NCBI GenBank assembly: GCA_029851415.1
Contig: CM056742.1
Span: 86,294,748 to 86,358,747, forward strand
Direction: 5' to 3'
DNA from: Eretmocerus hayati
Lineage: Eukaryota; Arthropoda; Insecta; Hymenoptera; Aphelinidae
Length of the DNA: 64,000 nucleotides
Under the pieces are notes generated by a model. That model was given only the letters and a program-made list of their open reading frames with translations, was not told where the DNA came from and searched no databases. A program made the position numbers and the translations under genes. Positions 1 to 62,719 of the stretch are shown piece after piece; position 1 is the first letter of the stretch; each line of letters starts with the position of its first letter.

Positions 1-503
1 TCGGAGTTAGCTTGCCCAACTCGCAAGGATGACTCCCCGGGCCTAAGAATTGTGCATTCCATCCTATCTCAGCATATAAGACATATATCTGAAATTACAG
101 AAAAATCCCTGACCATCGACGAAAATCCTGGTCATACTAAAGGGAATGACTCAAGTATAACTTCGATTGAACTACGTTCGGCTCCACTCAGCTATGGATC
201 TATGCGTCAACCTGCTTCTCATAACTCTCTCCTGTATTGTTCTCTAACAAGATGCACTACCAAGGATCGACCCAAGTGGCCTACTTGCTGAGTAAATGTC
301 CCCATGTTGGACCGAAGACACGTGTGAGTCATCAGCTTTTGTATTGAAAATGATATATCCTCGTGCCTATAACCTCATACTTAGAGTGAATTCGTATCCC
401 ATCATCAATTGTTTCATACACAACACAAAGTTCATCTGAAGTGAATCTTTCATTCCATTAGTACAGGCACATGTCACGCATGCTTTTCCTCCATCAAGCT
501 CAC
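1..503 (-). other. Probable intron downstream of the Ddi1 exon; nothing else recognised
   Basis: This stretch follows a good splice donor (GTGAGC on the minus strand) that ends the Ddi1 exon. I searched it by eye for the next Ddi1 exon, which should continue the aspartic protease core just after the active site, and did not find it. That exon probably lies outside the window. Confidence 0.4.
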
Positions 504-758
504 CTGAATCTATGAAGGCTCTAACCGGGTGACTGTTCACTCTACAATTTATATACAACATCACTACGGTTCCGAATGTTTCCGGGTTGTATTCGATTGC
601 AGCTTCCATGTTTGCCTCAATATTCTTCTGGCGTATTTCTTCAGCGATCAATCTCTGAGCCTCGGCATCGAATGGATCGGCATTCATCATCTTCAATCTC
701 TGGCTCTGGCAGTTATTCCTGATTCTCATCTGTTCTCTTAGTGTGTCTGTGAACTTAC
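504..758 (-). CDS. Ddi1: DDI1 aspartyl protease homologue, single internal exon (partial gene)
   Basis: Ddi1 (rngo in Drosophila) is a ubiquitin-shuttle protein with a retroviral-like aspartyl protease domain that processes ubiquitylated substrates at the proteasome. The exon, inside a longer open frame at 367-783, encodes the conserved linker before the protease ([19 protein letters not shown]), then [13 protein letters not shown] and AFIDSG. The last contains the catalytic Asp of the D-S-G active site (codon at 510-508). The frame then becomes unrelated exactly at CAG|GTGAGC, a canonical donor, so residues encoded at 503-367 are read-through. An acceptor (CTGTCCCCAG) precedes base 758, giving a 255-bp exon with phase-1 boundaries on both sides. 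The ubiquitin-like N-terminus and the rest of the protease were not found in the window. It could be one exon of a live gene or an isolated fragment; intact splice signals favour the former. Confidence 0.72.
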
Positions 759-2887: not shown

Positions 2888-5252
2888 TCATAAAATACGA
2901 TGTAAATTATGATTTTTCAGAAAAAACTTGGTTATTTGGGTTTGCTTGGTTCGGCGGAGAAGATCAGAATGTAAACTTTTGTAACACTCCAATGCAGATT
3001 CAATATTCATCTTGAACTGAAGACCCCTGGTCATAATTGGATCATAATTCAGCAAATCTTCAACTGCATTTTGTATCGATGTTATCACTTTCAAAAGAAT
3101 TTGAGTGGTGAGAACAGGCTCAGGTTGATCAGATTCTGGCGCTTCCGGGGGTGCGTCTAGAATTCCTTCGATTTCTTCTGGAGCTAAGTTTGTATACTGA
3201 TCTGATACTATTATTTCCAATAGTTCTGATTCATGTGCGTCAGAGAATCACTCCCCTCCAACATCTCTCGCTGCACTCAAAGTTTGCTGAACTATTTCCG
3301 AGTATTCTGGCTCGCTATTTTCAAGTGACGCGACGAACTCTGGTAGCAACTTCTTCCAAGACAAGTTGAGTGTAGAATCATTAACTTTCTTCTAGCTTTC
3401 CCCAACAATAGCGATCGAATGAGATATATTGAAACCTTTCTAGAAGCTGCGCACTGCGTTCTTAGAATCAATGTCAGCAGCTGCACTATCATTTATTACG
3501 CTTAACATGATCCTCATAACTTGCCTCAGATAATGAGCTTTAAATGTAGCGATCACATTTTGATCCATAGGCTGTATCAGCGGTGTTGTATTAGGTGGCA
3601 GGAGCATGATGTCGATATTTGGATGCAAGTTGTGTAGAGTATCGGAGTGAGAAGGTGCATTGTCCATTAGCAAGAGAAAATTGAATACAATGTTTTACTT
3701 CGTTGAAAACTCTTTTACCTCTGGAACGAAAGACTGAACGAACCATTCTTCAAAAATTTTCTTTGTAACTCACGCTGTTTTAACTGATCGCCACAATACG
3801 GTTAGAGGCTCTTTCCTCTTGCCAATGAGTGCCTTGGGAGTTTCGGATCGATAAACCAGCATAGGTTCGCATCGGAAAGTGCCCAAAATTGATTTCACAC
3901 GTGAACAATACATGTCATTACAATCCAATGTAATTCAATAAAACTTTATGTACCTGAAGCATTAGCACAGGATAGAAGCGTGTATCGGTCCTCTGATGCT
4001 TTGAATCGAGCAGCTACTTTTTCTTCGCTCATCAAATAAGTCCGACTAGGCATTTTTCCCCAATAGAGTCCGGTCTCATTTAATTCAATAACTGATAAAA
4101 CAATTCAATACCTGATGTGACATGTAACCTTTCTCTCGAATAATGCTCCTCAGATATGGAGGAAATTCTCGTGCTGCTTCATGATCGGCCGACGCCCTTT
4201 CGCCGAAAAATGCAATGCTGCGCAGGGAAAACCTTGCTTTGAAACGGTTAAACCATCCTGGACTCGCTGCAAAGGTACTTTTTGGATCGGGATTGCAACT
4301 TTTCCCCCTAAAATACTCATAGAGAACAAGGGCTCTCTCAGATATTGCAGTTACACTCAGAGGCACTTTTTTATGTATCATATCTTGGATCCAAATTTTG
4401 AGGAGGTTTTCCATTCGCTCTATATCTCCTGGATGCTTACTTTTCTGGATGATGCATGCGATCCTAATGATTCTGCACTTTCTCTAATCTTCTTCTTATT
4501 GTCACGAATTCATCTGATTGTCGACTCATTCCCTGACTAAAATGAAAGAGTCTTAAGAAGAGTCTTTTGGAAGACTCTTTAAAAGTCTTCCGAAGTGTTT
4601 TATTATAGACAGTCAGTAAATGAGACTCATGGTCGATAAGACTCTTGTGGAAAAAGACTCATGCGATTGTTCCACTGTAATTTTCTCAACTTGTTTTGGG
4701 ATAATTTTCCGGTGCTTTTCTGGAAGGATGGTGAGCATGCGAACTGTAAAAAGAGCTCGTTGGATGAAATGTCGAATCAACTTCGTTTAGAGGCTATGAA
4801 GAAAATCTCCGCATTGATTCTTTGTAATCCGTGATTAATAGAAAAATTTCAATCGAAGGGAATAACTACTGAAAACTAGTTCTGAAAACTTTGCGAATGT
4901 TCTATCTCAATAATATATGAATAATACACATTCAGCTCAACAACTGAATTGGGAAAGCCCTGGATGATCCCATGAGTCTCATCCACTGACTCTCTATAAT
5001 GAAACACTCCGGAAGACTCTTTTAAAGAGTCCTTTAAAAGACTATTTTATTTTAGTCAGGGACGCCCTACCTTCTCGCTAAGATACCAACTTTTCCTCCA
5101 GATTTCAACAAATTCAATATGTTCAACTTCTCCGCTGAATTCAATACTTGTTTTTGTTTCTCCTTCTTAGTTTTCTCTAATGATCTATCACTTTTCGGGG
5201 CTATGATGAATTTTGGAAAAGTTGTTACAATTTGATAACCCCAAATAACCAA
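2888..5252 (-). pseudogene. Tigger-type transposase, broken by stops, frameshifts and a MITE
   Basis: Read from 5252 downward, the pieces are: an N-terminal pogo-like HTH (SAEKLNILNLLKSGGKVG, 5067-5252); after the MITE, ESTIR and IRDNKKKIRES; the CENP-B-type HTH at 4085-4414 (MENLLKIWIQDMIHKK, then GWFNRFKARF and ASADHEAAREFP); the first catalytic region at about 4085-3960 (NETGLYWGKMPSRTYLMSEE, then RFKASEDRYTLLSCANAS); the second catalytic region at 3440-3673 (MDNAPSHSDTLHNLHPNI, LLPPNTTPLIQPMDQNVIA); and the C-terminal tail at 2888-3220. The usual first catalytic Asp of the DETGL motif is Asn. There are in-frame stops, for example just before the MITE, and an unexplained insert of about 65 bp near 3895-3960. 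It encodes no functional enzyme. Confidence 0.85.
4530..5062. mobile_element. MITE nested in the Tigger transposase
   Basis: A 533-bp insertion has imperfect inverted repeats of about 95 bp. The left arm starts TCCCTGACTAAAAT (4530) and the right arm ends ATTTTAGTCAGGGA (5062). Both arms carry AAGACTCTTT motifs, then an ATTATAGA..GTCAGT stretch, then ATGAGACTCATGG. It has no coding capacity. It splits the Tigger HTH, because the homology resumes on the other side within a few codons. I see no clear target-site duplication, so the superfamily is unassigned. Confidence 0.75.
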
Positions 5253-13913: not shown

Positions 13914-15093
13914 TCACCGAGGAAGAGCAACGTAAAGCTGTCCATTGGAGAGAATTTGTCGTTTTATATAAATATCAACCTCATCTAAACTTCCACGTGG
14001 AGACTTATTAATTGTCATTGCCAATACCGAGACCACAGGGAGCTGTTCCCTGTGAACTACAAACGGCAGGAAAGACTCACCCTTGGTTAGTGTTAGCTTG
14101 GGTACGAAAACTATTGTCCCCATATTCTCCCCACTTATCACTTCCGCTCCAATATCATGCTTGTACAATGACCTAATCTTTAATCGAACCCTATTACATG
14201 AACCCTTCGCCACTCTCAGATTCCGAATCATCAGATTCCGATTCAACATCACAACAGCATTTACGTTCAAATCAAGTCCATGTGGAGTTAAACCGTCTCT
14301 AATTCTATTCAGAAACTCGGTTGAATATTTCAGATGAGTGTGCTCCTCGGTTTGATCTACACCTTTGTGAGTCGCATGATCAACGCTTAGTAAGATGAAG
14401 TCGGACCATCGAACATTTCCAAGATTTTCTTATTCAATTTTATGATATTTTCTTCATGAGATGACAGAACAACTCTATTCGTGGCAATATCTTCATTGAT
14501 GTCTTTGGATATTGGTTCTACGTACATCATTACTCTTCCGTTCAGGTCTCACTTTCACTTCATCAATTCTACCCTCACCTCTACCAGAAGGATGTTGGAA
14601 AAATCAGGTCCTTAGATCTCAAATTTTTAGTCAGCTTCATTACATTAAACAATTGCCATAAGGCTGACGATGTGATAGTTTCCTGGATTACAGAATGTCT
14701 ATTCCCATTGGTCAAAACTGGCAGGATTTGTCTGAAATCCCCGCCTGAAATCACCAATATTCGACCAAAGGGTGAGTCATTGTAAAAAGCGTCACGGAGT
14801 GTTCTATCCACCACCTCCAACGCTTCTTTGGGAATCACTGATGCTTCACCCGAGATGATAACACCTGCTTCCCTCAATTTCTTCCCATCGGCATCAGATT
14901 TCAAAAAAATACTCTCAATACTTTCTAGATCCAAGGGTATTCTGAAGTATCTATGACTTGTCATACCTTGTGGTGAAAAAAATCGACTCAATACTCGTCC
15001 ACGCCATTGGCAGAATCTTCTTCTTTTGGGATAAAAAATATCAAATGAGAGACCCTTACAAGGAAGTTTTTCCACAATCTCCAGGACTATCAA
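13914..15093 (-). pseudogene. Helitron Pif1-like helicase remnant
   Basis: This is the helicase part of a rolling-circle (Helitron) Rep/helicase. The upstream piece (14581-15093, minus) contains TSHRYFRIPLDLE, then the Walker B neighbourhood GEASVIPKEALEVVDRTLRD, then FGRILVISGGDFRQILPVL. The middle (about 14390-14520) carries LSSHEENIIKLNKK. The downstream piece (13914-14270) has VMLNRNLMIRNLRVAKGSCN and ends with the SF1 motifs AMTINKSPRGSLDEVDIYI and NGQLYVALPR. Damage is clear: the Walker B acidic residue is Gly (GEAS), the usual TINKSQGQ motif is TINKSPRG, the final SR is PR, Walker A is missing, and the frames are separate. No Rep (HUH) domain is visible. Confidence 0.8.
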
Positions 15094-15189
15094 TGAAACT
15101 GACTAGACTTTCATTACTTCTTAAGTTACTATGGATGGACTATTGATTCTCCACTCCTTCAAATCAATAATCAGGAGTAGCGGGGGTTG

Positions 15190-25560: not shown

Positions 25561-25726
25561 CACATGGTTCTGCTTGATTTGACCATTCTGCATCGATCAA
25601 TTTCCAGAAACATCCATCGTTCGGTGGAAGTGACATTCTTGTCTATGGAGAAATCAGAGCGGAATCAACAGTTGACAAAGAATTTACAGGCTTTTACTAA
25701 TGATCAATGTTTGGAGGAACTAGCCG

Positions 25727-27174
25727 TGTAACGTGAGATTTGACTCTACGTCCAACTAATTTATTATTTTGCCGGAGATCCAAATTCCCCTGCCAAACTG
25801 AGGGAACGAATGCCTGGAATCTTACCTGCGCTCCTGCCGGGCTGCTGGGAAAGAGGGAGGGAACGAATATTGATTCTCAAGAAATAATAACGACCAGGAA
25901 GTTCATTTCGAACTATACTAATATATATTGTTACAGCCCTCAGAACGCGACCAATAAATTACAACCGGAAAGTTACTGAATATTCGCATCAAGCGTCTAT
26001 AAAATGTCCACTATTTCACTATGCCTCGTGGGCCACTGGAGCCATATTGGCTTCCGTAAACCTTTTTCACTAATATGATCAGAGTTCCACACGCGCACTC
26101 AATTTCCCAATTTTGATGGCTCACCGGGTCGCGCGGATTCCTGGAGAGTCACCCTAGCAGATCTCGAGCCCAATCAAGGGCGAGATGTCTCAGTCTATGT
26201 CTTTGTCGACGGGAAAAGATGGTGGATCGGGGACAGAGAGAGAGAGTATTTCAAAGAACAAGGCAGTCGCACTCACCGTCAATCACTACCCAACTTTCCC
26301 CGTTTATTCCGTCCATGCTCTTTTCCTTGTATTTCCTGGATCTCCTTGTAATATTAATGGGAATCGTCGGAAAAAATTGGAATATAAGATGGTTCCTGGA
26401 AATCGCGAAGACTAACTGATCCGCACTGCACCGAGTCACTTCCAAGAATGGCCGACTTCCCTCGTCTTCTTCTTCTTCCTCGATCCCCCGACGCGATCAC
26501 AGAGCCCTCATTAATCAAACTAATTTCCGGGAAATTAACCCGCGAGATACGAAAGACACCGAATCATGATGCTGGAATTTCATATAAATCCCGCGCCGAC
26601 ACTCCACTCGAGAGCCCCGCATTTTACCTACGTTACTGAATCGTGCCTCCACCCGTGTGACATGCGCACTACCCGTAATAATCACGTATCTCACAGCAAC
26701 TCCACCATCACGTCAGGCCACGTGCATTTAATATTACCAATTGTCTCTGTCTCTCTCACTCGCATGATCTCCCGCACATAACCGGCTCCGTCTCTCTCAT
26801 TCCACTGCAACTTTGCCTACACGAGCGTGCCGTGCGCAAAACCCTATCCCTCTCTCTCTCACTCTCCCGACGCTACACATCCTCTGTCTCTCTCTCCCCA
26901 CTTCCCGCGCGAGCCCGCCTCGTTGCCGCATGATCTTCTGCTCCCGATTCCAACGTCCAGTAAGTGCTGCCACGCCGCGCCCACTCTTGGCGTAACCTGC
27001 TATACCGACTCTCCTCCCTCTTCCTGACTCTGATATTCTGCTGACTCCCGCTGCTGCTCCGCTCGCGGCATCCACCTCGGCAAAAATATTACTCTGCATT
27101 ATTACATGCTCTAGGTGCGATGGCCCGGCGCAGCAGCGGACGGTGGCGACGGTGATATCGGCGACTCCGTCGCA
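25727..27174 (-). repeat. 3' LTR of the gag-only element
   Basis: 1,448 bp, plus-strand TGTAACGTGAG to CCGTCGCA. It matches 31191-32638 base for base wherever I compared. Short frames and TC-rich stretches inside it occur in both copies and are not genes. Confidence 0.95.
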
Positions 27175-27186
27175 TATCCCCCCACC
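27175..27186 (-). promoter_or_regulatory. Polypurine tract
   Basis: The minus strand reads GGTGGGGGGATA directly before the 3' LTR start TGCGACGG, the plus-strand priming site. Confidence 0.75.
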
Positions 27187-27517
27187 AAGCCGGGCTACTC
27201 CCGACGGGAGTGGACCGCCTTCTCAACTCTCCACTGTCACCACCGATCCGCTTCTGCCTCGGACCCTTAATCCAAGTCTCCTGAATGCCAACAATCCCCA
27301 TGCCCTTTAATTCAGCAATTAATTATGTACATCCACACATATCATCCATTATTTCTTACGTCCTACGATTTCATGCATTCCCCTTCACCATTACTACTAC
27401 TACTACTACTATTACTACTAATACTACTAATAATAATATAGATCCTTACTACATGGTCGCCATGTCGAGGCATGCCGATCACGTCTTCATCTTGACTGGT
27501 ACCGAACTTCAGCTCCC
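27187..27517 (-). other. Short 3' non-coding part of the element, with a trinucleotide repeat
   Basis: Only 331 bp separate the Gag stop codon from the PPT, with no room for pol. It includes an ACT/TAGT-type trinucleotide repeat at about 27391-27440. Confidence 0.7.
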
Positions 27518-30268
27518 CTAAGCTCTCCCCATCCCATTTCCCTGATTATTATTTCCAAAATTGCATACACGACAGTTACGCACTGTTACTCCCTTAGCCC
27601 CACAACCTTGACAAGCGATCCCCTGTTGATTGCATTCATTCGCCACGTGCCCGGCCTGATTACAAACATAGCACTGTCGCTCTGGACATTCCCTCGAATA
27701 ATGACCCGCAGCTCCACAATTATAACACGTGTTTCCGGCCTGATTCTGTACTCCATTTTGCCCCGGCACCCCATTCCCTGGTTGCTGCCTGTTTTGGAAC
27801 CCATTCCTCCGCGGTTGACCTCCCAAAAATCTCTGACGCAGGCCGTTAAAGTCCATTGGCCACATCCAAGGCATCTGCGAACACATCAACGGACATATTC
27901 CAGGCCAATGACATTGTGCTGCCGGCTCAACGGGATTCGTCTGCGTCATCGTCTGATGGGGGTTCGCTTGAGTAGCGCGCTGACTTTGTGTTCCTTGAGG
28001 TATAGACGGAGCTGACTGAGTACCAGTCCGCTGCAACGCCGCAGCCTCGGCTTCTCCCTCTGTCTCTTGGTTGTGACTAACCTTCGTCTTATTCCTATCC
28101 TGAGAACACTTCTCGAGTCCGTCTCCGTCTGGTTTCCTTTTCTCCTCCGAATCTCTTTCCATTGCTGCCGCCTGCAACAGTTTTTGGGATGATTTATCTC
28201 CACCGTACGCTGCACTCTTCACCCGAGCTTTCTCTCTCGGAGGAGGCGCTATGTACCGCTCATCCAACTCTCTTTCTTTCTCCCATTTTCGCCCATAATG
28301 CTCTATATCACTTAATCGGGTAATTGTCTTACCAGAAATGTATTGTCGCAACTCTGGCAATAGATTCCTTCTGACTTTGTTCATCACCCATCTACGGCTT
28401 GGGGCTTCTCTGAAAAGATCCACTATCTGCTTCACACATGTGAGGTATTGTGATATCTTCTCCCCCTTTGCCTGAGTTCTTTGTCTCAACTCGTCCATCA
28501 AATCTTCTTCATCCCATTCTCCGACATACTGGTACCTGAAGGCTCTCGCAAACTTCCTCCAGCTTGTCATTTCGCTTTTCCTTGTTCTAAACCATATTCG
28601 AGCTTTTCCAGATAGTACTGCTGGAATAGCTCCCATCATCTCTCGATTTGACATGTTCAACTGATCCTTGCAATCCTCCAAGCTGGAAAGAAATTCTTCT
28701 GGGCACTCCTCTTTCACCCCTGAGAAACTCAGTTTCCAACTCTGCAGGAGTTTTATGCATTTCAACGTGTTCCCAGAACTCTGCTTTTTGTATGATTTCT
28801 TCTTCTTTGATCTCCTATCTTGATCTTGCTCGCTTGTACTACTTTCGGCCGAGCTGCTTTCGCTGCTACTCGTTGAACTACTGGTGCTCTCGCTACTACT
28901 CTTCTCGATCTCCCGCCCCCGTCTCCGTCTCCGTCTCCGCCTGCGCTCACTGCTCGAGCCATCAGATTGCTCCGATGACGAGCTGTCGCGCTTCTTTCTT
29001 CCACCTTGTCCCTTGTCCCCGTCACCAGCTATACTATTTGTCGGTTGCTTCATCTGCCCCCCTGAATTAACCCCGGATTTCCCAACAGTGTTTAGCTGGG
29101 CGGCACCCTCATCGTTCATTGACAGCCGCTTTTTCACCCTTTGCCGCTCCGCAGTTTTCTTGTTCCTGTGACCCGTCTCCCCGATAGGTTTTTCTCGTGC
29201 TCTCCTCGAGCCCGCATCGACTCTCGTTTTACTCGACTGTCGAATCTTTTTAGAGGACCGATGACTCGTTCTCGAACTCGTAGTACTCGTCTCCGTCTCC
29301 GAACTAGTTTGCACCGCTTTGTCCTGGGTTCTACTAGTCTCATTTCTCCACTTCTCTACCACTGCATCACTGTTCGACCCGGACGCGCTATCATCAGCAT
29401 CATCGTCCTCGTGGATCGTGGTTAATCCTGGTCTCGCGTTTGCTTGTGACTGTGGCATTGCGAATCCCCCGGCGTTTTCGTCTACAGTAGCCACCATGGT
29501 TGCCCATATGGCCATGTTCTGCTTCATCACTCTCATCATCTCCCATGACACTGGTACGTAACCTTGGGGTAAATAATACCCCATTTCTCCAGATGTCACT
29601 GGCCTTGACTGTGAATTCGACACCGATGCGGGGGTCCTAGTCTGCACTCCACTCACTCCTGAATCCATGACGAGAGAGGAGGGCTGTAGGCCCCCACTGG
29701 GTCCCGGTGTACTCGTGTTTTTATTCTGGTTGTTCCCACTCTGGTCAGCACCCTTCTGACCGTCTCCGTCAGCTATACCTGTGGTCCCCCCAGTGCGTGT
29801 CCCGTCATTCTCCTGACTCGAGGAATCTTCCTCTGATGATTTCCCCATCGTTTTATCTAACTCTTCTGGCAGTTCGTTCTCAAATGATATCAGATCTGCC
29901 ACACTGTTCGTTCTTCTTTCACGCGGTACGCTTTCTAGAGGTTTTTCATCCGTCATAGGATCCCACCTGACCTGCACTCCTGGTTCTATTCGTCGAATCT
30001 CAAAACGAATCAGCCTACTCCTGCACTCTGCGTTACTCCCTGCTGGATTACACCCTAACCTATCTAATTCATCTGCCAATTGCTCTGGTGGCAATGCGAC
30101 TATTAGCCTAGCTATTTTCCTACGTGCCCGGTCTCCATTAACCAGGTCTACTAAATGTTGCTCTTCTTCTGTCAACTGCCCACTTCTATGCCTAAACTTG
30201 AGACCCATAACCCCATGAGCGGAGGATCTCTCGGCCTCTCGGTGTATGTGTAGCCACCATCGGCTCAT
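27518..30268 (-). CDS. gag: Gag polyprotein of LTR retrotransposon (no pol)
   Basis: Structural protein that should bind the element RNA and assemble particles. The first in-frame ATG is at 30268 (weak context); the ATG 20 codons later at 30208 has a strong context (GTTATGG) and may be the true start. An extension to 30277 would need GTG. Numbering from 30268: residues about 52-92 look SAP-like (LPPEQLADELDRLGCNPAGS); 100-425 is low-complexity Ser/Thr/Gly-rich; 427-497 is an Arg/Ser-rich run; 504-669 is a Retrotrans_gag capsid domain (AVLSGKARIWFRTRKSEMTS, FARAFRYQYVGEWDEEDLMD). The tail (about 847-899) has three zinc-knuckle units: CYNCGAAGHYSREC, CYVCNQAGHVANEC and CQGCGAKGVTVRNC. The last lacks the His. 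The frame is intact for about 900 codons, long for a Gag. Confidence 0.9.
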   Translation of the reverse strand: MSRWWLHIHREAERSSAHGVMGLKFRHRSGQLTEEEQHLVDLVNGDRARRKIARLIVALPPEQLADELDRLGCNPAGSNAECRSRLIRFEIRRIEPGVQVRWDPMTDEKPLESVPRERRTNSVADLISFENELPEELDKTMGKSSEEDSSSQENDGTRTGGTTGIADGDGQKGADQSGNNQNKNTSTPGPSGGLQPSSLVMDSGVSGVQTRTPASVSNSQSRPVTSGEMGYYLPQGYVPVSWEMMRVMKQNMAIWATMVATVDENAGGFAMPQSQANARPGLTTIHEDDDADDSASGSNSDAVVEKWRNETSRTQDKAVQTSSETETSTTSSRTSHRSSKKIRQSSKTRVDAGSRRAREKPIGETGHRNKKTAERQRVKKRLSMNDEGAAQLNTVGKSGVNSGGQMKQPTNSIAGDGDKGQGGRKKRDSSSSEQSDGSSSERRRRRRRRRGREIEKSSSESTSSSTSSSESSSAESSTSEQDQDRRSKKKKSYKKQSSGNTLKCIKLLQSWKLSFSGVKEECPEEFLSSLEDCKDQLNMSNREMMGAIPAVLSGKARIWFRTRKSEMTSWRKFARAFRYQYVGEWDEEDLMDELRQRTQAKGEKISQYLTCVKQIVDLFREAPSRRWVMNKVRRNLLPELRQYISGKTITRLSDIEHYGRKWEKERELDERYIAPPPREKARVKSAAYGGDKSSQKLLQAAAMERDSEEKRKPDGDGLEKCSQDRNKTKVSHNQETEGEAEAAALQRTGTQSAPSIPQGTQSQRATQANPHQTMTQTNPVEPAAQCHWPGICPLMCSQMPWMWPMDFNGLRQRFLGGQPRRNGFQNRQQPGNGVPGQNGVQNQAGNTCYNCGAAGHYSRECPERQCYVCNQAGHVANECNQQGIACQGCGAKGVTVRNCRVCNFGNNNQGNGMGRA

Positions 30269-31171
30269 ACACTTCACCGAGATCCGACCTCAACGCTGTC
30301 TTAGTCCACGTCACCGTCTCACCTAATCTCAAAATCCACACTACCCAACAAAATCCCTCGATTCTAACCTCCCCGTTAGCCACGAACTAATCCTTATCCC
30401 ACCCGACAACACCAGAGGTACAGTGTCAAAATCACTAGATGGATGTTTGGATTTATTCAGTAAACCAGGGTCAGGTCGATGGGACGGAAGGATCTCAAAT
30501 CGGGAGGATAGCTCTTGAGTTCGGTGCCACAGCTTCTCCAGCACTGCGCCGACACGTGAACCATGAGGATTGAATCCTATAATGTCACTTACACCACCCT
30601 TTTCCTACTCAGGCATGCATAAGTTACAAAAGACCATAAAACAACGAGAAAAAAAATTCCGGGCGAAAAAAAAAATTGCCTTAACTTCCACCACCCGTCT
30701 ACACCAACTACTTCATTCACTCTTATCATGACCGAATTAAAAGAACAAATGAAACTAAAAAAAACAGATTTCCTTCGAGTCGCCTTAGCTCCACTACCCC
30801 ACGCTGAAAAATCAACATTTGCCCCGTGCTATCATAGCTCCACTACAAAAAAAATCCATCGAAACGCATCAAAATTATTTCACAACACTCAATACTCATT
30901 CCACTCATCCAAATTCATCAATCTCCATTCAACGAGGTCATTTGGGGCATATCAGGATTATTGGAGTCCGTTATTAAGGTCCGGACCCGGTGAGCAACGT
31001 GTACCGTATCAGGAGCCTGAAATGCGAGTGTACCATCTCGCCCCTATACTCATATCACCCCCCAGCGCCGGCTTCGTCTATGTCTGCGGCTCCGTCTAAG
31101 TCTCTGATCCCCCCTCACCACCTCGTTCCCGCTCAGCACTCCCGCGCAAGCAAGATTCCGCACTCATTGGA
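30269..31171 (-). other. 5' leader of the gag-only element
   Basis: The 0.9-kb untranslated leader between PBS and Gag. It holds short frames (30192-30383 and 30341-30544, minus). The second is in the Gag frame but separated from it by a stop. A packaging signal would be expected here but cannot be seen by eye. Confidence 0.55.
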
Positions 31172-31188
31172 TCCTGGCAGGATCGCCA
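31172..31188 (-). promoter_or_regulatory. Primer binding site, tRNA-Arg type
   Basis: The minus strand reads TGGCGATCCTGCCAGGA, two bases from the LTR. It is complementary to the 3' end of arthropod tRNA-Arg(ACG) (..TCCTGGCAGGATCG plus CCA) as I recall that tRNA; the match ends after 17 bases. Confidence 0.75.
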
Positions 31189-31190
31189 TT

Positions 31191-32638
31191 TGTAACGTGA
31201 GATTTGACTCTACGTCCAACTAATTTATTATTTTGCCGGAGATCCAAATTCCCCTGCCAAACTGAGGGAACGAATGCCTGGAATCTTACCTGCGCTCCTG
31301 CCGGGCTGCTGGGAAAGAGGGAGGGAACGAATATTGATTCTCAAGAAATAATAACGACCAGGAAGTTCATTTCGAACTATACTAATATATATTGTTACAG
31401 CCCTCAGAACGCGACCAATAAATTACAACCGGAAAGTTACTGAATATTCGCATCAAGCGTCTATAAAATGTCCACTATTTCACTATGCCTCGTGGGCCAC
31501 TGGAGCCATATTGGCTTCCGTAAACCTTTTTCACTAATATGATCAGAGTTCCACACGCGCACTCAATTTCCCAATTTTGATGGCTCACCGGGTCGCGCGG
31601 ATTCCTGGAGAGTCACCCTAGCAGATCTCGAGCCCAATCAAGGGCGAGATGTCTCAGTCTATGTCTTTGTCGACGGGAAAAGATGGTGGATCGGGGACAG
31701 AGAGAGAGAGTATTTCAAAGAACAAGGCAGTCGCACTCACCGTCAATCACTACCCAACTTTCCCCGTTTATTCCGTCCATGCTCTTTTCCTTGTATTTCC
31801 TGGATCTCCTTGTAATATTAATGGGAATCGTCGGAAAAAATTGGAATATAAGATGGTTCCTGGAAATCGCGAAGACTAACTGATCCGCACTGCACCGAGT
31901 CACTTCCAAGAATGGCCGACTTCCCTCGTCTTCTTCTTCTTCCTCGATCCCCCGACGCGATCACAGAGCCCTCATTAATCAAACTAATTTCCGGGAAATT
32001 AACCCGCGAGATACGAAAGACACCGAATCATGATGCTGGAATTTCATATAAATCCCGCGCCGACACTCCACTCGAGAGCCCCGCATTTTACCTACGTTAC
32101 TGAATCGTGCCTCCACCCGTGTGACATGCGCACTACCCGTAATAATCACGTATCTCACAGCAACTCCACCATCACGTCAGGCCACGTGCATTTAATATTA
32201 CCAATTGTCTCTGTCTCTCTCACTCGCATGATCTCCCGCACATAACCGGCTCCGTCTCTCTCATTCCACTGCAACTTTGCCTACACGAGCGTGCCGTGCG
32301 CAAAACCCTATCCCTCTCTCTCTCACTCTCCCGACGCTACACATCCTCTGTCTCTCTCTCCCCACTTCCCGCGCGAGCCCGCCTCGTTGCCGCATGATCT
32401 TCTGCTCCCGATTCCAACGTCCAGTAAGTGCTGCCACGCCGCGCCCACTCTTGGCGTAACCTGCTATACCGACTCTCCTCCCTCTTCCTGACTCTGATAT
32501 TCTGCTGACTCCCGCTGCTGCTCCGCTCGCGGCATCCACCTCGGCAAAAATATTACTCTGCATTATTACATGCTCTAGGTGCGATGGCCCGGCGCAGCAG
32601 CGGACGGTGGCGACGGTGATATCGGCGACTCCGTCGCA
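31191..32638 (-). repeat. 5' LTR of the gag-only element
   Basis: Identical partner of 25727-27174. It should contain promoter, transcription start and polyadenylation signals on the minus strand. Its outer edge is followed by the TSD GCCG. Confidence 0.95.
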
Positions 32639-32642
32639 GCCG

Positions 32643-38838: not shown

Positions 38839-39297
38839 TCACGGCAAAGCTACCAATTTCAGAGATTTGGTTTGGGCAGCACAGCCAATGCGTAAATGTG
38901 GGAGACCCAATCCGTTTATTTTTGATTTTCCAGTTTTGTTTGTTGTGCAATTCTCAGAAATAAATTCTGCATGTTCAGTAGAGAAGACCCATGTATTTTC
39001 TTTCTCTAATTTTGTCCAAAATATTTCTTGCAATTTGGCTATTTTGAATCCACATGTAGGGAGAGTAATAAACCCTCTCCCTACTGCCAACTTAACTTTG
39101 CATGGTGAAAAATTGCCCACTGTTCTGAATGGTCCTGGATTCTCACAAACAAGAGTTCTTCTAAGATGTTTACAGTTATTTAATGCTTCGACACTGAATT
39201 CAATGTATGCTTCATGATCGTCATTAATTGCCGTGTAAATCGAATATGGCCACATGAAAGCTGAAACCGATGAGTTCCTCTGTTTCACTGGTACCAA
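38839..39297 (-). pseudogene. Envelope-like (baculovirus F / errantivirus Env type) remnant
   Basis: A 152-codon minus-strand frame shows a spacing pattern typical of the membrane-proximal ectodomain of F-like envelope proteins carried by gypsy-type retroelements: paired Cys (CKVKLAV, then TLPTCGFKIAK), an aromatic motif FWTKLEKENTWVFS, then Cys, a Gly-rich INGLGLPHLRIGC and a downstream hydrophilic segment. It is truncated at the N-terminus, a stop follows at the 3' side, and no pol of the same element is seen nearby. It could also be an unrelated cysteine-rich fragment; the identification rests on motif pattern only. Confidence 0.42.
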
Positions 39298-40261
39298 ACG
39301 AGCTTCAAAGAGGCTGTATCCATTACGATCCCTTATGGGTTGGTCTGAGGATTGCCATTGGAACCTATCTGTATTTGCCTATGGGGACGAGTCAATGGAA
39401 ATGAAAGAGCTTGTAATTTTTGAATTACTCATCCAATTGCCTTCATATTTTGAGGTCTGCTCCAGCATGTTTTAAGCTGTTCTGTATCCAGCTACAGGGT
39501 TCTATGTATTTTGGTCCCAGATTTTGGTTTTTATAACCATTTACCATGATGAGCTTATGCTTTGTCATCTCAAATTCTGAAAATGCCCATTCTGGGCTAC
39601 GGTTCTTCATATAATTGGCTGAAATTCTACCTATAGGTCCTAATTGTCCTCTAGAACAGTCAGTCGATTGCATTTCCTTTAGTTGACATGCTTATTTGGG
39701 GACGAAAATTTTCAAAATTCATTTTGTTGCTTTGTATCTCATTCTTGCTTTTCATGATCAAAATTGGAGTTTCCCCTTGATACCAATGAGTATCTGTCGA
39801 TGCAATAAGTCAACAGTTTTGTGTTATGGAAATTATCTGAAATGGAACAGTACCCACAAAAAATAATGGAACATCGATACTCGCACTAAAACATCGACTG
39901 CTCAAAAAACTATTGGTCGTACGGCGATTTTGAAAAGAGCATCTTGAAGATCGAAAAAATGCTAACTTCTCATGTGCCTCAAAAGATTTTCTTATGTATT
40001 ATTCATGTCTAGTGTTCACTGTCAAGAAGTGAACTTTTTCAACTTTTGCGTCGATCACCTGTAATTTTCACGGGCATAAACGGATCGGAGAAAACTCAAC
40101 GGGATCTTGGAGGGCTTTTTGAAACCTTTAATCTCCTTTCTTCGAGAATCCTCTACGATGATTTGAAGCCAAACAATTGCTCTCTGATGACAACGATGAA
40201 ATATGCGTGCTACCTGTATGGTTCCAAGGGCGTTCCACCTTATTTTGATCCGACCTCGTTT
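39298..40261. other. No recognised gene
   Basis: Minus frame 39443-39673 could belong to the envelope remnant but shows no diagnostic residues. Confidence 0.35.
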
Positions 40262-45627: not shown

Positions 45628-46133
45628 ATTAGGAAATGATGACAAACTTGATACTGAAAGTTGTGTAAGAATAACCCACAGTATTACTCCTCCCAAGTTG
45701 TGCATTTGATTAATTCTGTTTCACAGAATTTGTTTCATTTTTTGATGTCCATTGTCTGGAGGAGAAAGATTGTATTAGTTCATGAAAAAGGTAATAAATA
45801 ATTCATTTAGCCATTCAAACTTAACTGAGTGAGATGAAAAACTCACATTTTAGAATAAAATGATTTTCAACGATGACTGCCATACGCTAAAAAAATCCAG
45901 GTTCAGACATGGCTGGAGGAGACTGCTTCATTTCTGTTTGATTTCCTTTTGATCATCTCAGTTCATCAGTTTTTTGTATTCAGTTGATCATAAGTCCCTT
46001 GGCCAAAAGTTCCTCAAGCCCTGTAAAAATCAAAAGAATTAGAATCCTATTCTTTTGCAGTCCTTGCCATAAAAATGGCAAAAACACAACCTGTATAATA
46101 TAGAAAGTTAAGTAAGTAGGAAACTACGCCGCC
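45628..46133 (+). promoter_or_regulatory. LINE 5' UTR with presumed internal promoter
   Basis: The 506 bp between the left TSD and ORF1. Non-LTR elements carry an internal pol II promoter here, but I cannot point to specific elements. It ends with a full Kozak consensus (GCCGCCATGG) at ORF1. Confidence 0.55.
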
Positions 46134-47531
46134 ATGGCTGGGCAGAAAGACCCGCCTGACAAGAGCTCACAGAAAAAATTCAAGTGTCATCCAAAAACTG
46201 CATTCTCCTTCGTTATCTGTATAATTTGTGAGGATGTGTACCACGGGAGTGATTTTAAGAGAAAAAATAACACGATAATTTTGAGCCCAGTATTTGTAGT
46301 GTGTCCAAATCACGGGCAGCTAAAACTAACCTCAAATAGTGATGAGGATATATCATTACTGAGTGAGACAGCAAGATTGATCATAGCTGATCTGAAGAGT
46401 AAACTAAAGAGGAATAAGAACGATGTTGAAGTTGACAAGGAAGAAAATGAAACAAGTGATAGTGAGAGTGATTTGACCTTACAGGAGGAAACTGATAATG
46501 AAATGGTGGAAAGACTAAAAGTTGAAAATGAACTCTTAAGAGAATTGAACATAGAACTGAAAGACAAGAATGAAATTTTGAAGAAAATGATGAAACAAGA
46601 AGATAAACAAATGACCTACAGTGCAACCTTGATGAATAAAGAGTTTACCTCCAAATTGAGCAATATACAGATACCAAGAATATGTGTCAAAAAGAAAAAG
46701 AAAGAGAAACCAGAAGAAACATTGAACAAAGTGAAAAATGTTATTACACATGAGATATATAAACCAATAAAAGCAGTGAAAGAAACCAAAGAAGGAAGTG
46801 TAATCATCTGTGCGAGAAAAGATGATGTGGACCAGACAGAAAAAGAGTTGAAAGAGAAACTTGGAGGAGAATATCAAGTGAATATTGAAGAACTCAGAAA
46901 ACCCAGAGTTAAAGTTGTGAGCATAGAGAATAACATGACAATACAAGAACTGGAAGATGACATTAATCAAAGGAACTTTGCTCATTTACAAGAAAAAGCA
47001 AAGGCGATACATCTGTATAAAAGTAAAAACAGAGAGGATAAACAAACCATAATCCTGGAAGTAACAAGTGATATATACAAGAGCATCAGAGATGATAATA
47101 GCAGGGTCTTCGTTGGGCATCAACGATGCAAAGTTTTTGATGATCTGAACATTGGACTATGTTATAATTGTGGAGGGACCGGACATAGCAGTAAGAATTG
47201 TGAAAATGATCCTAGCTGTCTGAGATGTGCTGGCCACCACTCAACAAAGGACTGTAAAAATGAAACAAAAGTTATTAAGTGTATAAATTGTCAGTACAGC
47301 AATGAAGAATATGGTACAAAGCGTGAAGTGAATCATGCAGCATATGACACCGAAAAATGCTCAATATTGAAAAATAAAATTAGTAGAATTGTAGACAGTA
47401 CTGACTACCCAATCAAGCCAGTCATACCTAAACAGATGATCATTAACAAGAGTCTCACACAGAGAGAGGCCGGTAAAACAGTGACCTACACTAGAAGCAA
47501 CTCTCATGCAGCACGGCGAGGAAGACGATGA
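46134..47531 (+). CDS. LINE ORF1 protein (RNA-binding, zinc knuckles)
   Basis: A 465-residue nucleic-acid-binding chaperone of the LINE RNP. The start has a perfect Kozak context (GCCGCCATGG). Residues about 25-62 hold a PHD-like Cys/His cluster (CIICEDVYHGSD and VVCPNHG), seen in ORF1 of several insect CR1/Jockey-group elements. Residues about 85-165 are acidic and Leu/Glu/Lys-rich with heptad character (VERLKVENELLRELNIELKD), a likely coiled coil for multimerisation. The C-terminal part has CCHC knuckles: C343-C346-H351-C356 (CYNCGGTGHSSKNC), C362-C365-H369-C374 (CLRCAGHHSTKDC), and a third Cys/His cluster starting CINCQYSNEEYG. Lys-rich stretches suit RNA binding. The frame overlaps ORF2 by 26 bp. 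Confidence 0.88.
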   Translation: MAGQKDPPDKSSQKKFKCHPKTAFSFVICIICEDVYHGSDFKRKNNTIILSPVFVVCPNHGQLKLTSNSDEDISLLSETARLIIADLKSKLKRNKNDVEVDKEENETSDSESDLTLQEETDNEMVERLKVENELLRELNIELKDKNEILKKMMKQEDKQMTYSATLMNKEFTSKLSNIQIPRICVKKKKKEKPEETLNKVKNVITHEIYKPIKAVKETKEGSVIICARKDDVDQTEKELKEKLGGEYQVNIEELRKPRVKVVSIENNMTIQELEDDINQRNFAHLQEKAKAIHLYKSKNREDKQTIILEVTSDIYKSIRDDNSRVFVGHQRCKVFDDLNIGLCYNCGGTGHSSKNCENDPSCLRCAGHHSTKDCKNETKVIKCINCQYSNEEYGTKREVNHAAYDTEKCSILKNKISRIVDSTDYPIKPVIPKQMIINKSLTQREAGKTVTYTRSNSHAARRGRR

Positions 47532-50367
47532 ATATATCAAGATAGATTTAAGCGTACACCAAACAATTGATGGCTTGAACAGCAGCCTACCAAAAGGTAA
47601 AAATGTGAAAATCATGCATATCAATGTGCGAAGTATAAAAAAGAATTTTGATAAGTTACTTATACTATTAGAAACTATGATTGAAAAACCAGATGTGATA
47701 ACATGTACAGAGACGTGGGCTATTGACTTGGAAAATTTTTATGAAATAGAAGGATATGATCTTTACTACAACAAAAGTAGGATAAATATTGCAGATGGAG
47801 TTTTAGTGTATACAAAGAGTGCCCACAAAGCCAAATATAGAGTTGCTGAATATGGAAATCTGAAGATCATCGATTCTGAAATTGAAATAAATAAAAGTAA
47901 AGTCTTAGTTAGCTCTCTATATCGAAGTCATGATGTAGATAAGAGTAAGTTCATTGATTGTATGAGAAAATTCCTACATGATAGAAGAGAATGGCAAAAT
48001 CATTTCGTAGTAGGAGACTACAATATAGATATTCTAAAAAGTGAAACGGAAAGTCAAGATTTTTTGAACAATTTTCTAGAAATGCAATATTTACCCTACT
48101 TTTTTACAGTAACAAGAAGCAATGATCGAGGAGGTGGAAGTTGCATTGATAACATTTTTGGGAAGTGCAAGGATTTTGAGTCGAAAGCACACAAGCTTAT
48201 CTATAAATTATCAGATCATGATATTTTAATTGCGGAAATCATAACAGAGAAAGAATCGACTATTAGAGTAGAGGATAAAGAATTCAGTGAGATAGATTAT
48301 AAAAAATTAGTTAAAGTAGCTGATTTGATAGACTGGAATGGATTAGTTGATGAAGATGTTGATGTTGCAATTAATAATGTAATTAGTAAAATCCGAGAAG
48401 TGATAGAAAAAGCTAAAATCAGAAAGAAGAGACTGTCACAAAGGCGTAGGAAACCCTGGATTACGCAGGCCTTGATGACCTCATGTGAAACAAAAAATAG
48501 ACTTTATAGAGAATGGCAAAAAGATAAGGATAATAATGATCTCAAAGATAAATTCAAAAAATACTCGAATAGACTTAATAGTTTGATTGATCATGCAAAA
48601 TTTACTTATGAAAAAACTAGACTATCGAGAATGAATGGAAATAGTAGAAAAATCTGGGGGTACGTGAAAGAAAAAATGGGATCCAAAAGTAAAAAGAAGG
48701 AAAAAATAGAGAGTTTGAAAAATGAATCTGGGGGAATCATTACGGATAATCAGGAGATTGCCAACGAGTTCAATGAATTTTTTAGTGGAATCGGGGAAAA
48801 ACTTGCTAAGACTATACGAGGTGGTCAAAAGAATTTTAGCATGCCTGATGAATTGTATAATGAGGATAGTTTTTTCATTCACCCTACAGATGAACACGAA
48901 ATCGAGAAAATAATGATGGAAATGAAAGATAAAGTGGGTGGAGTCGATAGTATTCATGCATCCATACTGAAAAGTCTGAGGCATTATCTCAGTAAGCCTC
49001 TGGCAGAAATTTTTAATAACTGCATAACGAAAGGCGTATGGCCTGAACATTTAAAGTCAGCAGAAGTAGTACCAATTTTCAAAACAGGAGAGAGAGATAA
49101 GGGGACTAATTATAGACCCATTTCGATCACATCAAACATAGCTAAAATTCTTGAGGAGTTGATACGCAGAAAATTAACGCAATTTCTCACAAAGTATAAG
49201 ATCTTGTCAAATAATCAATACGGCTTTAGGAAAAGCAAAGGTACAGCTGATGCGATTGCTGAAATAAGCAGAGTCATATATGAAAAACTTGATAAAAGTG
49301 AACCGATAGCAGCAACTTTTTTAGACTTAGCAAAAGCCTTTGACACTGTCAATCACAAGCTACTTCTTACCAAACTTGAGCATTATGGAATAAGAGGAAA
49401 AGCTTTAGAACTTATCACAAGTTACTTAGAGAATAGGCCCCAATACGTCAGAGTCAATGAAAAAATCAGTAATAAAAAGATTGTTAAGACAGGGGTGCCA
49501 CAGGGCACTATTCTTGGACCACTATTTTTTATCATCTACATTAATGACCTATTACGTCTAAGTGAGTCACATCTAATATCATATGCAGATGATACTGTAG
49601 TGTTCGTTTCAGGGAAAGACTGGATTACTGTTTCAAAAAAAATGGAAGAATACTTATTGAAAATATCTGAATGGCTAGAAACAAATCAATTAGTACTGAA
49701 TCTAACAAAAACAGTTTTTATGACTTTTCACAATTATGATGATAAAAAACCTACGGACGTTCAGGTAACTATGAACGGCATTAGTTTAAAAAGAGTAGAA
49801 ACTACTAAGTACTTAGGATTGATTATTGACAGTCAATTTAAATGGAAGGAACACATAATGTATATTTTGAAGCGAACAAGATATCTTCTATTCCTTTTCG
49901 CGAAGCTGAGAAAAGTAATGGCAAAAGAGACTATGTTGATGATATATTATGGTTTATTCAATAGCATCGCAACCTATGGGATTCTGGCTTGGGGAAGTGC
50001 ATATGAGAATTCAATAAAGCCGTTGCAAAACTTACAGAAAAGAATAATGAAAACAATTTTGGGATTAGAAATGAGATGTGGTAATGGAAAAATGCCTTTT
50101 TCTATTAAAAAAGCGTACATATGGAATGTACTAGTGAAACATTATAAGGAACTGAGAGATATACATAATGAAAGAGATATAGGCACTAGAAACAAGTCAC
50201 TAAGACTGCCCAAAATGAAACTAGAAATTGGAAAAAAGTCTCATAATTATAATTCGGTCAAATACTTCAATATGTTGCCCGCGTCTCTAAAGAATCTAAA
50301 CTGTAGTCACGACATTATCAAGAAAAAATTGAAGACATGGTTGATGGAAGAAAACAGTATTGAATGA
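47506..50367 (+). CDS. LINE ORF2 protein: endonuclease and reverse transcriptase
   Basis: A 953-residue enzyme for target-primed reverse transcription. The N-terminal APE-like endonuclease (residues about 34-245) has its catalytic landmarks: N40 (HINVRS), E69 (TCTETW), D171/N173 (VVGDYNID) and S236-D237-H238 (LSDHD). A Lys/Arg-rich linker follows. The RT domain spans about 500-790: motif A D607 (FLDLAKAFDTVNH), GVPQG at 663-667 (GVPQGTILGP), motif C Y693-A-D-D696 (SYADDTVVF) and TKYLGLIID. The C-terminal region includes YGILAWGSAYENSIKPLQNL, as in CR1/Jockey-type ORF2s. There is no RNase H domain. All key catalytic residues are present. It starts inside ORF1 in the +1 frame, so translation probably relies on reinitiation or leaky scanning. 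Confidence 0.93.
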   Translation: MQHGEEDDEYIKIDLSVHQTIDGLNSSLPKGKNVKIMHINVRSIKKNFDKLLILLETMIEKPDVITCTETWAIDLENFYEIEGYDLYYNKSRINIADGVLVYTKSAHKAKYRVAEYGNLKIIDSEIEINKSKVLVSSLYRSHDVDKSKFIDCMRKFLHDRREWQNHFVVGDYNIDILKSETESQDFLNNFLEMQYLPYFFTVTRSNDRGGGSCIDNIFGKCKDFESKAHKLIYKLSDHDILIAEIITEKESTIRVEDKEFSEIDYKKLVKVADLIDWNGLVDEDVDVAINNVISKIREVIEKAKIRKKRLSQRRRKPWITQALMTSCETKNRLYREWQKDKDNNDLKDKFKKYSNRLNSLIDHAKFTYEKTRLSRMNGNSRKIWGYVKEKMGSKSKKKEKIESLKNESGGIITDNQEIANEFNEFFSGIGEKLAKTIRGGQKNFSMPDELYNEDSFFIHPTDEHEIEKIMMEMKDKVGGVDSIHASILKSLRHYLSKPLAEIFNNCITKGVWPEHLKSAEVVPIFKTGERDKGTNYRPISITSNIAKILEELIRRKLTQFLTKYKILSNNQYGFRKSKGTADAIAEISRVIYEKLDKSEPIAATFLDLAKAFDTVNHKLLLTKLEHYGIRGKALELITSYLENRPQYVRVNEKISNKKIVKTGVPQGTILGPLFFIIYINDLLRLSESHLISYADDTVVFVSGKDWITVSKKMEEYLLKISEWLETNQLVLNLTKTVFMTFHNYDDKKPTDVQVTMNGISLKRVETTKYLGLIIDSQFKWKEHIMYILKRTRYLLFLFAKLRKVMAKETMLMIYYGLFNSIATYGILAWGSAYENSIKPLQNLQKRIMKTILGLEMRCGNGKMPFSIKKAYIWNVLVKHYKELRDIHNERDIGTRNKSLRLPKMKLEIGKKSHNYNSVKYFNMLPASLKNLNCSHDIIKKKLKTWLMEENSIE

Positions 50368-53869: not shown

Positions 53870-54063
53870 GGATATTTTCTACCTCCTGCGAAAATTTCAG
53901 ATCGATTGGGTGAAAATTTAGAGCGTGAGTTGAAATATACGAAAAAGTTGGTATCCTAGCAGAAGTCTTCGGGCCGATCTCCGACATCCTCTTAACAGCG
54001 AATCTCTTTAAAATAACTCAACAAAATTGTATCTCAATTTCATTCTAGGCTCATATCTCCTTC

Positions 54064-62640: not shown

Positions 62641-62719
62641 GTCCATTCATGAATTCATTCAGCTTCAATACTTGTATTCGACCCCTGCAGGACAGGCAAC
62701 CCGCTTCGTCATCCATACA

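What the first reader, a model, noticed from the sequence alone, without database searches (positions are those of the whole stretch)
25727..32638. A recently moved LTR retrotransposon that encodes only Gag
Identical 1,448-bp LTRs, exact 4-bp TSD (GCCG), PBS and PPT show a fresh, structurally complete insertion, but the 4-kb interior has only a Gag of about 900 residues and no room for Pol. It is a non-autonomous but protein-coding element: it may make its own particles and borrow reverse transcriptase and integrase from a partner with the same LTR ends. The intact Gag over this length implies selection or very recent loss of pol.
Basis: partly seen in the sequence, partly recalled or inferred. 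Interest (0 to 1): 0.78.

Follow-up and report, generated by a model that had tools for sequence, protein, structure and literature searches.

The report
Gag-only retrotransposon with a pol-bearing partner
This jumping DNA element of an animal (probably insect) genome carries only the gene for its protein shell and no copying enzymes, yet it belongs to a family that has multiplied and kept its shell gene working, most likely by borrowing enzymes from a second kind of element that shares its ends but has a clearly different shell.

Summary
In detail: 25727-32638 (minus strand) has 1,448-bp LTRs with 0 differences, GCCG TSD, PBS, PPT, one 916-codon Gag and no pol. It is not a lone deletion: the 17 genome loci found with this capsid/nucleocapsid type (one read only in part) share one deletion junction right behind gag's own stop, and all 8 copies with at most 5 LTR differences keep an open Gag. 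Two copies with this LTR carry pol; PBS and PPT are the same and LTRs 93.6-97.5% identical, but their capsid is only about 75% identical in amino acids with saturated synonymous sites. LTRs of both kinds interleave in one tree; capsids split completely. So ends and part of Gag were exchanged, the capsid not in the copies seen. The Gag-only capsid is under purifying selection (omega about 0.1). Best reading: a semi-autonomous element with its own capsid, mobilised in trans. Plants have close analogues (RLG_Quinta/RLG_Cereba, Athila, TR-GAG); my paper searches listed no such insect pair. Mobilisation, particles and co-packaging are inferred. Neither dated pol copy is as young as this one.

The parts
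25727..32638 (-). whole Gag-only LTR retrotransposon
31191..32638 (-). 5' LTR, 1,448 bp, identical to the 3' LTR
25727..27174 (-). 3' LTR, 1,448 bp
25723..25726 (.). target site duplication GCCG, left
32639..32642 (.). target site duplication GCCG, right
31171..31188 (-). primer binding site TGGCGATCCTGCCAGGAT, 2 nt behind the 5' LTR; 17 nt fit the 3' end of insect tRNA-Arg(ACG) as I recall it (not tested)
   Evidence: tRNA identity recalled
30269..31190 (-). 922-nt leader; first 250 nt 98% identical to partner copies A and B
27518..30268 (-). gag, 916 codons plus stop, open
28169..28768 (-). capsid region (about residues 501-700): 152 and 150 of 200 aa identical to partners A and B, under strong purifying selection in the Gag-only copies
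27563..27733 (-). nucleocapsid region with zinc knuckles; the last Cys-rich motif aligns with the end of Gag in Trichogramma kaykai P0003
27509..27520 (-). deletion junction: gag's own stop TAG followed at once by sequence matching the last codons of partner A's ORF3 (short imperfect homology GGGGAGCTG / GGAGAACT)
27175..27517 (-). 343-bp 3' noncoding tail, 97.5% (A) and 95.7% (B) identical to the partners
27175..27188 (-). polypurine tract next to the 3' LTR, identical in both partners

Best explanation
A semi-autonomous Ty3/gypsy-type LTR retrotransposon. Shown: it encodes one complete Gag and no enzyme; it is one of at least 17 loci with the same founding deletion; its capsid evolves under purifying selection; copies of a second kind in the same genome have pol and share its LTR, PBS, leader start and PPT; LTR, leader and the N-terminal part of Gag have a history different from that of capsid/nucleocapsid, which stays separate between the two kinds. 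Inferred: its RNA and Gag enter particles together with the partner's Gag-Pol, whose reverse transcriptase copies the RNA (switching templates between the two RNAs) and whose integrase, reading the same LTR ends, inserts the copy. Its own Gag is needed in cis, which is why it is conserved. Confidence is for the pair plus trans-mobilisation, not for mutual benefit; I lowered it from 0.82 to 0.80 on checking, because only two pol-bearing copies with this LTR were read.
For: Family: LTR search, 42 matches with 40 of 134 candidates scored. Of 59 gag matches (50 of 3,044 candidates scored), I count 17 loci with at least 80% identity in the stretches that cover capsid/nucleocapsid; 16 have the Gag-only junction in full, the 17th over 115 of 160 probe bases. 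Partners A (L019/L020) and B (L021/L022): a 1,185-codon open pol in A with protease, RT, RNase H and integrase, 4-bp TSDs AGTT and AACG, same PBS and PPT. Identity window vs A: LTR 97.5%, tail 97.5%, gag nt 501-1000 98-99%, gag nt 1001-2751 60-74%. Synonymous divergence window vs A is 0.03 at residues 167-333 but saturated at 334-700, so synonymous sites of one frame have two histories. LTR tree (12 Gag-only rows; 4 partner-type rows A, B, L017, L028): a single Gag-only clade is rejected, p-AU 5e-49; capsid tree: 16 Gag-only vs 3 partner-type rows (A, B, L028) split with support 100/100. Selection in 8 young copies: omega 0.34 (GY) or 0.27 (MG) for residues 417-916 and 0.10 or 0.08 for the capsid; omega = 1 rejected, p 1e-4 to 0.007. 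Capsid changes: shared 10 synonymous to 2 nonsynonymous, against singletons of 8 older copies 13 to 29 (2 nonsense included), Fisher p 0.002; codons with more than one change left out.
Against: Only A and B were read as pol-bearing with this LTR; L017 keeps integrase only, and L028 was not read beyond its partner-type gag. Neither A nor B is as young as the window copy: LTR differences are 11/1520 and 19/1448, against 0. A's gag frame stops at 892 codons, before the nucleocapsid, and its leader holds a 2,047-bp insert, so the present source of enzymes is not identified. Six more related RT loci (79-92% to A) were not fetched or dated, their LTRs are not among the 42 LTR matches, and one of them (C3:87.41M) has no gag match listed beside it. 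The shared-versus-singleton contrast is not significant for residues 417-916 as a whole (p 0.11), and the older copies' singletons there also show a synonymous excess (46 of 129, p 0.0015 at kappa 2). Some single pairs give high omega on few changes (L011-L013 1.95 on 8 changes; linker window-L015 1.07 on 5). In the N-terminal segment a single Gag-only clade is not rejected (p-AU 0.17). No expression, particle or mobility data.
Confidence: 0.8

Rival explanations
1. Cooperative two-capsid system: the Gag-only element supplies a second Gag that the partner also uses, so both gain.
For: Both Gags are constrained (A-B omega about 0.25); the two capsids are not swapped in the copies seen although sequence around them is. 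Wheat Quinta/Cereba is described this way by its authors (passages).
Against: Nothing here shows a benefit to the partner: at least 17 Gag-only loci against 8 related RT loci, of which two are tied to this LTR, and the 8 youngest of the 15 copies whose LTR pairs were compared are all Gag-only, which also fits parasitism.
Confidence: 0.25
2. Interfering parasite: the divergent Gag enters partner particles and favours its own RNA, lowering the partner's success (comparable to copy-number control by Ty1 Gag fragments, recalled).
For: Gag-only copies outnumber the pol-bearing copies seen, and the youngest dated copies are Gag-only.
Against: No direct evidence; numbers alone do not separate this from plain parasitism, and only two pol-bearing copies were dated.
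Confidence: 0.2
3. Lone or very recent deletion derivative of a gag-pol element; Gag is open only because there was no time to decay.
For: LTRs identical in the window copy.
Against: 17 of 17 loci found with this capsid share the junction, several of them old (LTR differences 19 and 28); none showed pol behind gag; capsid omega is about 0.1.
Confidence: 0.02
4. The enzymes come from another Ty3-type family of this genome, not from the A/B kind.
For: Many other RT loci at 65-71% nucleotide identity exist; no pol-bearing copy as young as the window copy was seen.
Against: Shared LTR, leader and Gag N-terminal segments point to shared reverse transcription with the A/B kind at some time. LTRs of the other families were not compared.
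Confidence: 0.13
5. The two kinds share LTRs through gene conversion between chromosomal copies rather than template switching in particles.
For: Conversion between repeats can homogenise LTRs (general knowledge).
Against: Young Gag-only copies (for example window and L010) share the same partner-like N-terminal segment, which points to exchange before amplification; not a formal test.
Confidence: 0.12

Closest known systems
RLG_Quinta / RLG_Cereba pair of wheat (PMC11302176; passages read)
   Same: Pol-less element coding GAG, partner with pol, same PBS and LTR ends, GAG genes highly divergent while flanks are similar, recombination inferred.
   Different: Plant, centromere-targeted; Quinta adds a domain of unknown function. 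Here: animal, no extra domain, one shared deletion junction, and similarity over the whole LTR (93.6-97.5%).
Gag-only Athila families of Arabidopsis (PMC2410132; passages read)
   Same: LTRs plus a single Gag ORF, purifying selection (gag omega 0.19-0.38 in the families tabled, some of which have pol), recombination between families.
   Different: Plant; many Athila also carry env. [quoted passage not shown]
RLG_Sabrina_SA and RLG_WHAM with RLG_Wilma (PMC9744471; passages read)
   Same: Semi-autonomous elements with Gag but no RT or IN that co-evolve with a pol-bearing family.
   Different: They encode Gag plus protease and have minimal sequence homology with Wilma.
TR-GAG elements, for example AT5TE33540 (PMC8704663; passages read)
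   Same: Two LTRs and one GAG ORF; an insertion of this one was detected, so such elements can move.
   Different: Plant Copia element highly similar to its autonomous relative; here Ty3-type with a divergent capsid.
Trichogramma Gag / Gag-Pol proteins P0001-P0006
   Same: Only protein relatives found; 25-36% identical in the main matching stretches, same kind of zinc-knuckle array; P0003 ends 22 residues after its last CxxC, the window's Gag 14.
   Different: P0005 and P0006 continue into protease and integrase, P0006 also RT; different genome.
PbTRIM of a harvester ant (PMC3532108; passages read)
   Same: Non-autonomous LTR element in a hymenopteran.
   Different: Codes for nothing; no functional partner had been found.

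Membership tests
Terminal-repeat retrotransposon with GAG (TR-GAG) | two LTRs (here also PBS, PPT and TSD) | tested here: met
Terminal-repeat retrotransposon with GAG (TR-GAG) | single ORF coding GAG and no other domain | tested here: met
Terminal-repeat retrotransposon with GAG (TR-GAG) | described so far in plants (all papers listed that I could place are on plants) | tested here: not met
   Host not named; the only Gag relatives found are from wasps. So: works like a TR-GAG; calling it one stretches the name.
autonomous / non-autonomous pair by the wheat criteria (as read in PMC11302176) | identical PBS | tested here: met
   same in L020, L021 and L028
autonomous / non-autonomous pair by the wheat criteria (as read in PMC11302176) | identical LTR termini (integrase sites) and similar LTRs | tested here: met
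autonomous / non-autonomous pair by the wheat criteria (as read in PMC11302176) | only one candidate partner family shares these features | tested here: inconclusive
   The pol-bearing copies that I read with this LTR (A, B; L017 in part) are of one kind, but only 40 of 134 LTR candidates were scored
Ty3/gypsy (Metaviridae) | pol order protease-RT-RNase H-integrase | tested here: met
   partner A pol, (the window element itself has no pol)
Ty3/gypsy (Metaviridae) | Gag of Ty3 type | tested here: met
   Retrotrans_gag above cut-off; Ty3_capsid and Arc_capsid_dom below cut-off; Arc chains by sequence, E 9e-6
LARD / TRIM | no coding capacity inside | tested here: not met
   916-codon Gag under selection
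BARE-2 type (pol kept, gag broken) | gag defective, pol intact | tested here: not met
   the reverse is found
mobile in trans | new insertions depend on the partner's enzymes | not testable with these tools
   needs living material

The most novel reading that the evidence does not exclude
A bipartite retrotransposon in an animal: two RNAs that share all cis-acting ends and exchange LTR, leader and the Gag N-terminal part, but each keeps its own capsid/nucleocapsid, one only with pol and one only without. The strict coupling would mean that the second capsid has a distinct job in a mixed particle, so that the pair replicates as one split genome.
Probability: 0.22. Interest if true: 0.82.

Novelty: new variant of a known kind. 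Interest (0 to 1): 0.6.

Why it matters
Gag-only elements that keep Gag under selection are described in plants, where it is open whether they are parasites or contributors. Here a compact animal case has a fossil record in one assembly: young and old Gag-only copies, pol-bearing copies with the same ends, one founding deletion, and a sharp border at the capsid between exchanged and separate sequence. That makes the question of whether two divergent capsids share one particle directly testable in an animal.

Tried and rejected
Whole-length protein search with Gag found nothing (words probably spent on low-complexity stretches; my guess); the capsid part alone gave one Trichogramma protein, and that protein gave five more, two with pol domains. 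Three scans of viral contigs found no relative. Structure models of capsid and N-terminus were poor (mean pLDDT 57.8 and 48.6) and were not used. Whole-Gag omega of 0.28 for window vs L015 was set aside as the main evidence because one search showed that the N-terminal segment is shared with pol-bearing elements, so past selection there could have acted in the partner; I used residues 417-916 and 501-700 instead. Splicing as the cause of the junction was rejected: no GT at the 5' break (my reading). Lone deletion derivative: rejected. The tRNA-Arg primer was not verified and a genome-wide search with the junction itself never ran: neither search was answered.

Full report
What is there. The element at 25727-32638 is on the minus strand. 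Its two LTRs are 1,448 bp with no difference, end in TG...CA and are flanked by GCCG on both sides. Two bases behind the 5' LTR starts TGGCGATCCTGCCAGGAT, and TTGGTGGGGGGATA abuts the 3' LTR. By recall only, 17 nt of the PBS fit insect tRNA-Arg(ACG). Between a 922-bp leader and a 343-bp tail lies one open frame: ATG at 30268, 916 codons, stop ending at 27518. Pfam finds zinc knuckles and Retrotrans_gag, with Ty3_capsid and Arc_capsid_dom below cut-off; Arc capsids are the best solved structures by sequence. Leader and tail have stops in every sense frame.

Relatives by protein. The capsid part found one Trichogramma protein, and that found five more, of which two carry protease and integrase and one of these also RT. 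P0003 ends 22 residues after its last CxxC pair, the window's Gag 14 residues after the matching one (counted by me). So the window holds a complete Gag, not a piece. P0006 matches the element only in its Gag part, apart from a 28-residue chance hit.

A family without pol. The window's genome has 692,130,109 bp in 17 contigs; the window is C2:86294748-86358747. The LTR has 42 matches there, with 40 of 134 candidates scored, so counts are lower bounds. Gag has 59 matches, 50 of 3,044 candidates scored, with a list that runs down to other families at about 40% identity. By my count of that list, 17 loci are at least 80% identical to the window in the stretches that cover capsid and nucleocapsid. 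Sixteen have gag running directly into the same tail; in the seventeenth a 421-base fetch shows the same junction at 83% over 115 of 160 probe bases. Of 11 other Gag-only copies fetched with both ends, 10 have their own 4-bp TSD (L009-L016, L018, L024); the eleventh, L023, has a shortened 3' LTR match, so its right border was not read. LTR differences run from 0 (window, L009, L013, L014) over 2-5 (L012, L010, L011, L015) and 10 (L016) to 19 (L024) and 28 (L018); L023 has 8 in the 946 bases that align. The 8 copies with at most 5 differences all have an open Gag; the 8 older copies read carry a stop or indels.

The partner. Two loci with this LTR have long interiors with pol. Copy A has a 1,185-codon open pol with protease, RT, RNase H, H2C2 and integrase. 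In copy B gag is open (974 codons) and the pol frame overlaps it by 40 nt in the -1 frame; B's pol is open, in the same frame, on both sides of the border between the two fetched pieces. Both have a third ORF of 624-636 codons. TSDs are AGTT and AACG. PBS and PPT are identical to the window's. Copy A's gag frame stops at 892 codons, before the nucleocapsid, and its leader holds a 2,047-bp insert; copy B's 3' LTR holds a 586-bp insert bordered by simple repeats. Two more copies with this LTR are partner-like: L017 keeps the start of gag, integrase and ORF3, and L028 has a partner-type gag and was not read further. The RT of copy A has 8 related loci at 79-100% identity, A and B included. Seven of the 8 have a gag match beside them, none of the window's capsid type, and one has none listed. 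The six other than A and B were not fetched or dated, and their LTRs are not among the 42 LTR matches.

The junction. In the window, gag's stop TAG, the same stop as in partner B, is followed at once by sequence matching the last codons of partner A's ORF3. The deletion thus removed pol and nearly all of ORF3 and nothing of Gag. The two break sites share a short imperfect match (GGGGAGCTG and GGAGAACT), as a template switch would leave. There is no GT at the 5' break. The present partners are not the direct parent, so the break positions are approximate.

A mosaic with one fixed part. Against copy A the window is 97.5% identical in LTR and tail, 98-99% in gag nt 501-1000, but 60-74% over gag nt 1001-2751. 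Against L015, another Gag-only copy, it is 66-72% in gag nt 501-1000 and 97-100% beyond nt 1250. Synonymous divergence from A is 0.03 in residues 167-333 and saturated in 334-700. Constraint on noncoding signals does not explain this; different histories of neighbouring segments do. In the LTR tree (midpoint root) the two kinds interleave in two clades, one with L018, L023, L024, B, L017 and L028, the other with the window, L009-L016 and A; a single Gag-only clade is rejected (p-AU 5e-49). In the capsid tree 16 Gag-only and 3 partner-type rows split with 100/100 support. In the N-terminal segment 5 Gag-only copies form one type and 11 Gag-only copies fall with the 3 partner-type rows, but a single Gag-only clade is not rejected there (p-AU 0.17). 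Exchange of this kind normally needs both RNAs in one particle during reverse transcription (established for retroviruses); that step is inferred here.

Selection. Whole-Gag comparisons are mixed up with the exchanged N-terminal part, so I used residues 417-916 and 501-700, which among the loci seen occur only in pol-less elements. In the 8 young copies residues 417-916 show 18 synonymous and 17 nonsynonymous single changes (one codon with several changes left out), where about 1:3 is expected (p 3e-4 at kappa 2 and 2e-3 at kappa 4; LTR-based kappa about 2.7). Codon models give omega 0.34 (GY) or 0.27 (MG) there and 0.10 or 0.08 for the capsid; omega = 1 is rejected (MG p 1.4e-4 and 3.9e-4; GY, with kappa fixed too, p 0.007 and 0.004). 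Capsid changes shared by copies are 10 synonymous to 2 nonsynonymous, while singletons of the 8 older copies are 13 to 29 with 2 nonsense included (Fisher p 0.002; codons with several changes left out). Against this, the same contrast for residues 417-916 is not significant (p 0.11), older copies' singletons there also show a synonymous excess (p 0.0015 at kappa 2), and some single pairs give high omega on few changes (L011-L013 1.95 on 8 changes; linker of window vs L015 1.07 on 5). Selection on amino acids in a pol-less lineage means that its own Gag protein matters for its own spread.

How it most likely works. Shown: complete Gag, one founding deletion, repeated insertion, selection on Gag, shared ends with pol-bearing copies, mosaic outside the capsid. 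Inferred: the Gag-only RNA is packaged with the partner's Gag-Pol, reverse-transcribed and integrated by the partner's enzymes. Not shown: who benefits, and which copy supplies pol now, since neither of the two dated pol copies is as young as the window copy.

What is known. [quoted passage not shown] see also PMC10552921, passages). PMC2410132 says that abundant coding non-autonomous copies had not been described in yeast, worm or fly. In insects, passages of PMC3532108 and PMC3286476 describe non-coding elements; the reference list of the latter names a 1997 paper on CM-gag of Culex, said in its title to contain only a gag gene, which I did not read. The ten paper searches listed no insect pair of this kind; I saw titles and starts of abstracts of the rows listed, some lists were capped, and the library lacks most subscription papers. 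I therefore rate it a new variant of a known kind.

Noticed in passing
L019:2086-3957 (-) and L022:2300-4207 (+): Partner elements carry a third ORF of 624-636 codons, rich in Arg/Glu/Pro, with a zinc-knuckle array that weakly resembles Gag's nucleocapsid (blastp E 3e-4; Pfam zf-CCHC E 0.003); Pfam shows no env.
   Followed up: partly
L017 (C4:31988181-31996950): A differently deleted copy: Gag N-terminal part joined to integrase and ORF3, so deletions arose more than once in this LTR family.
   Followed up: partly
window 38842-39378 (-): Fragment matching Baculo_F (Pfam E 1e-13), probably an env remnant of an errantivirus-like element.
   Followed up: no
window 46116-50367 (+): LINE with two overlapping open frames (471 and 960 codons stop to stop; zinc knuckle and RT), perhaps recent.
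   Followed up: no
window 13917-15102 (-): PIF1-like helicase fragments, perhaps of a Helitron.
   Followed up: no
window 3443-4483 (-): Tc5 DNA-binding and DDE_1 transposase fragments.
   Followed up: no
window 370-783 (-): Fragment matching Ddi2_HDD and aspartyl protease, perhaps a gene retrocopy.
   Followed up: no
window 54000-62700: Large satellite-like array with GC skew about 0.8 over 6 kb, then falling and reversed.
   Followed up: no
L025, L026, L027: LTRs of this family (98, 98 and 94%) without leader or gag beside them in the 8-kb stretches fetched, flanked by 4-bp repeats: solo LTRs.
   Followed up: partly
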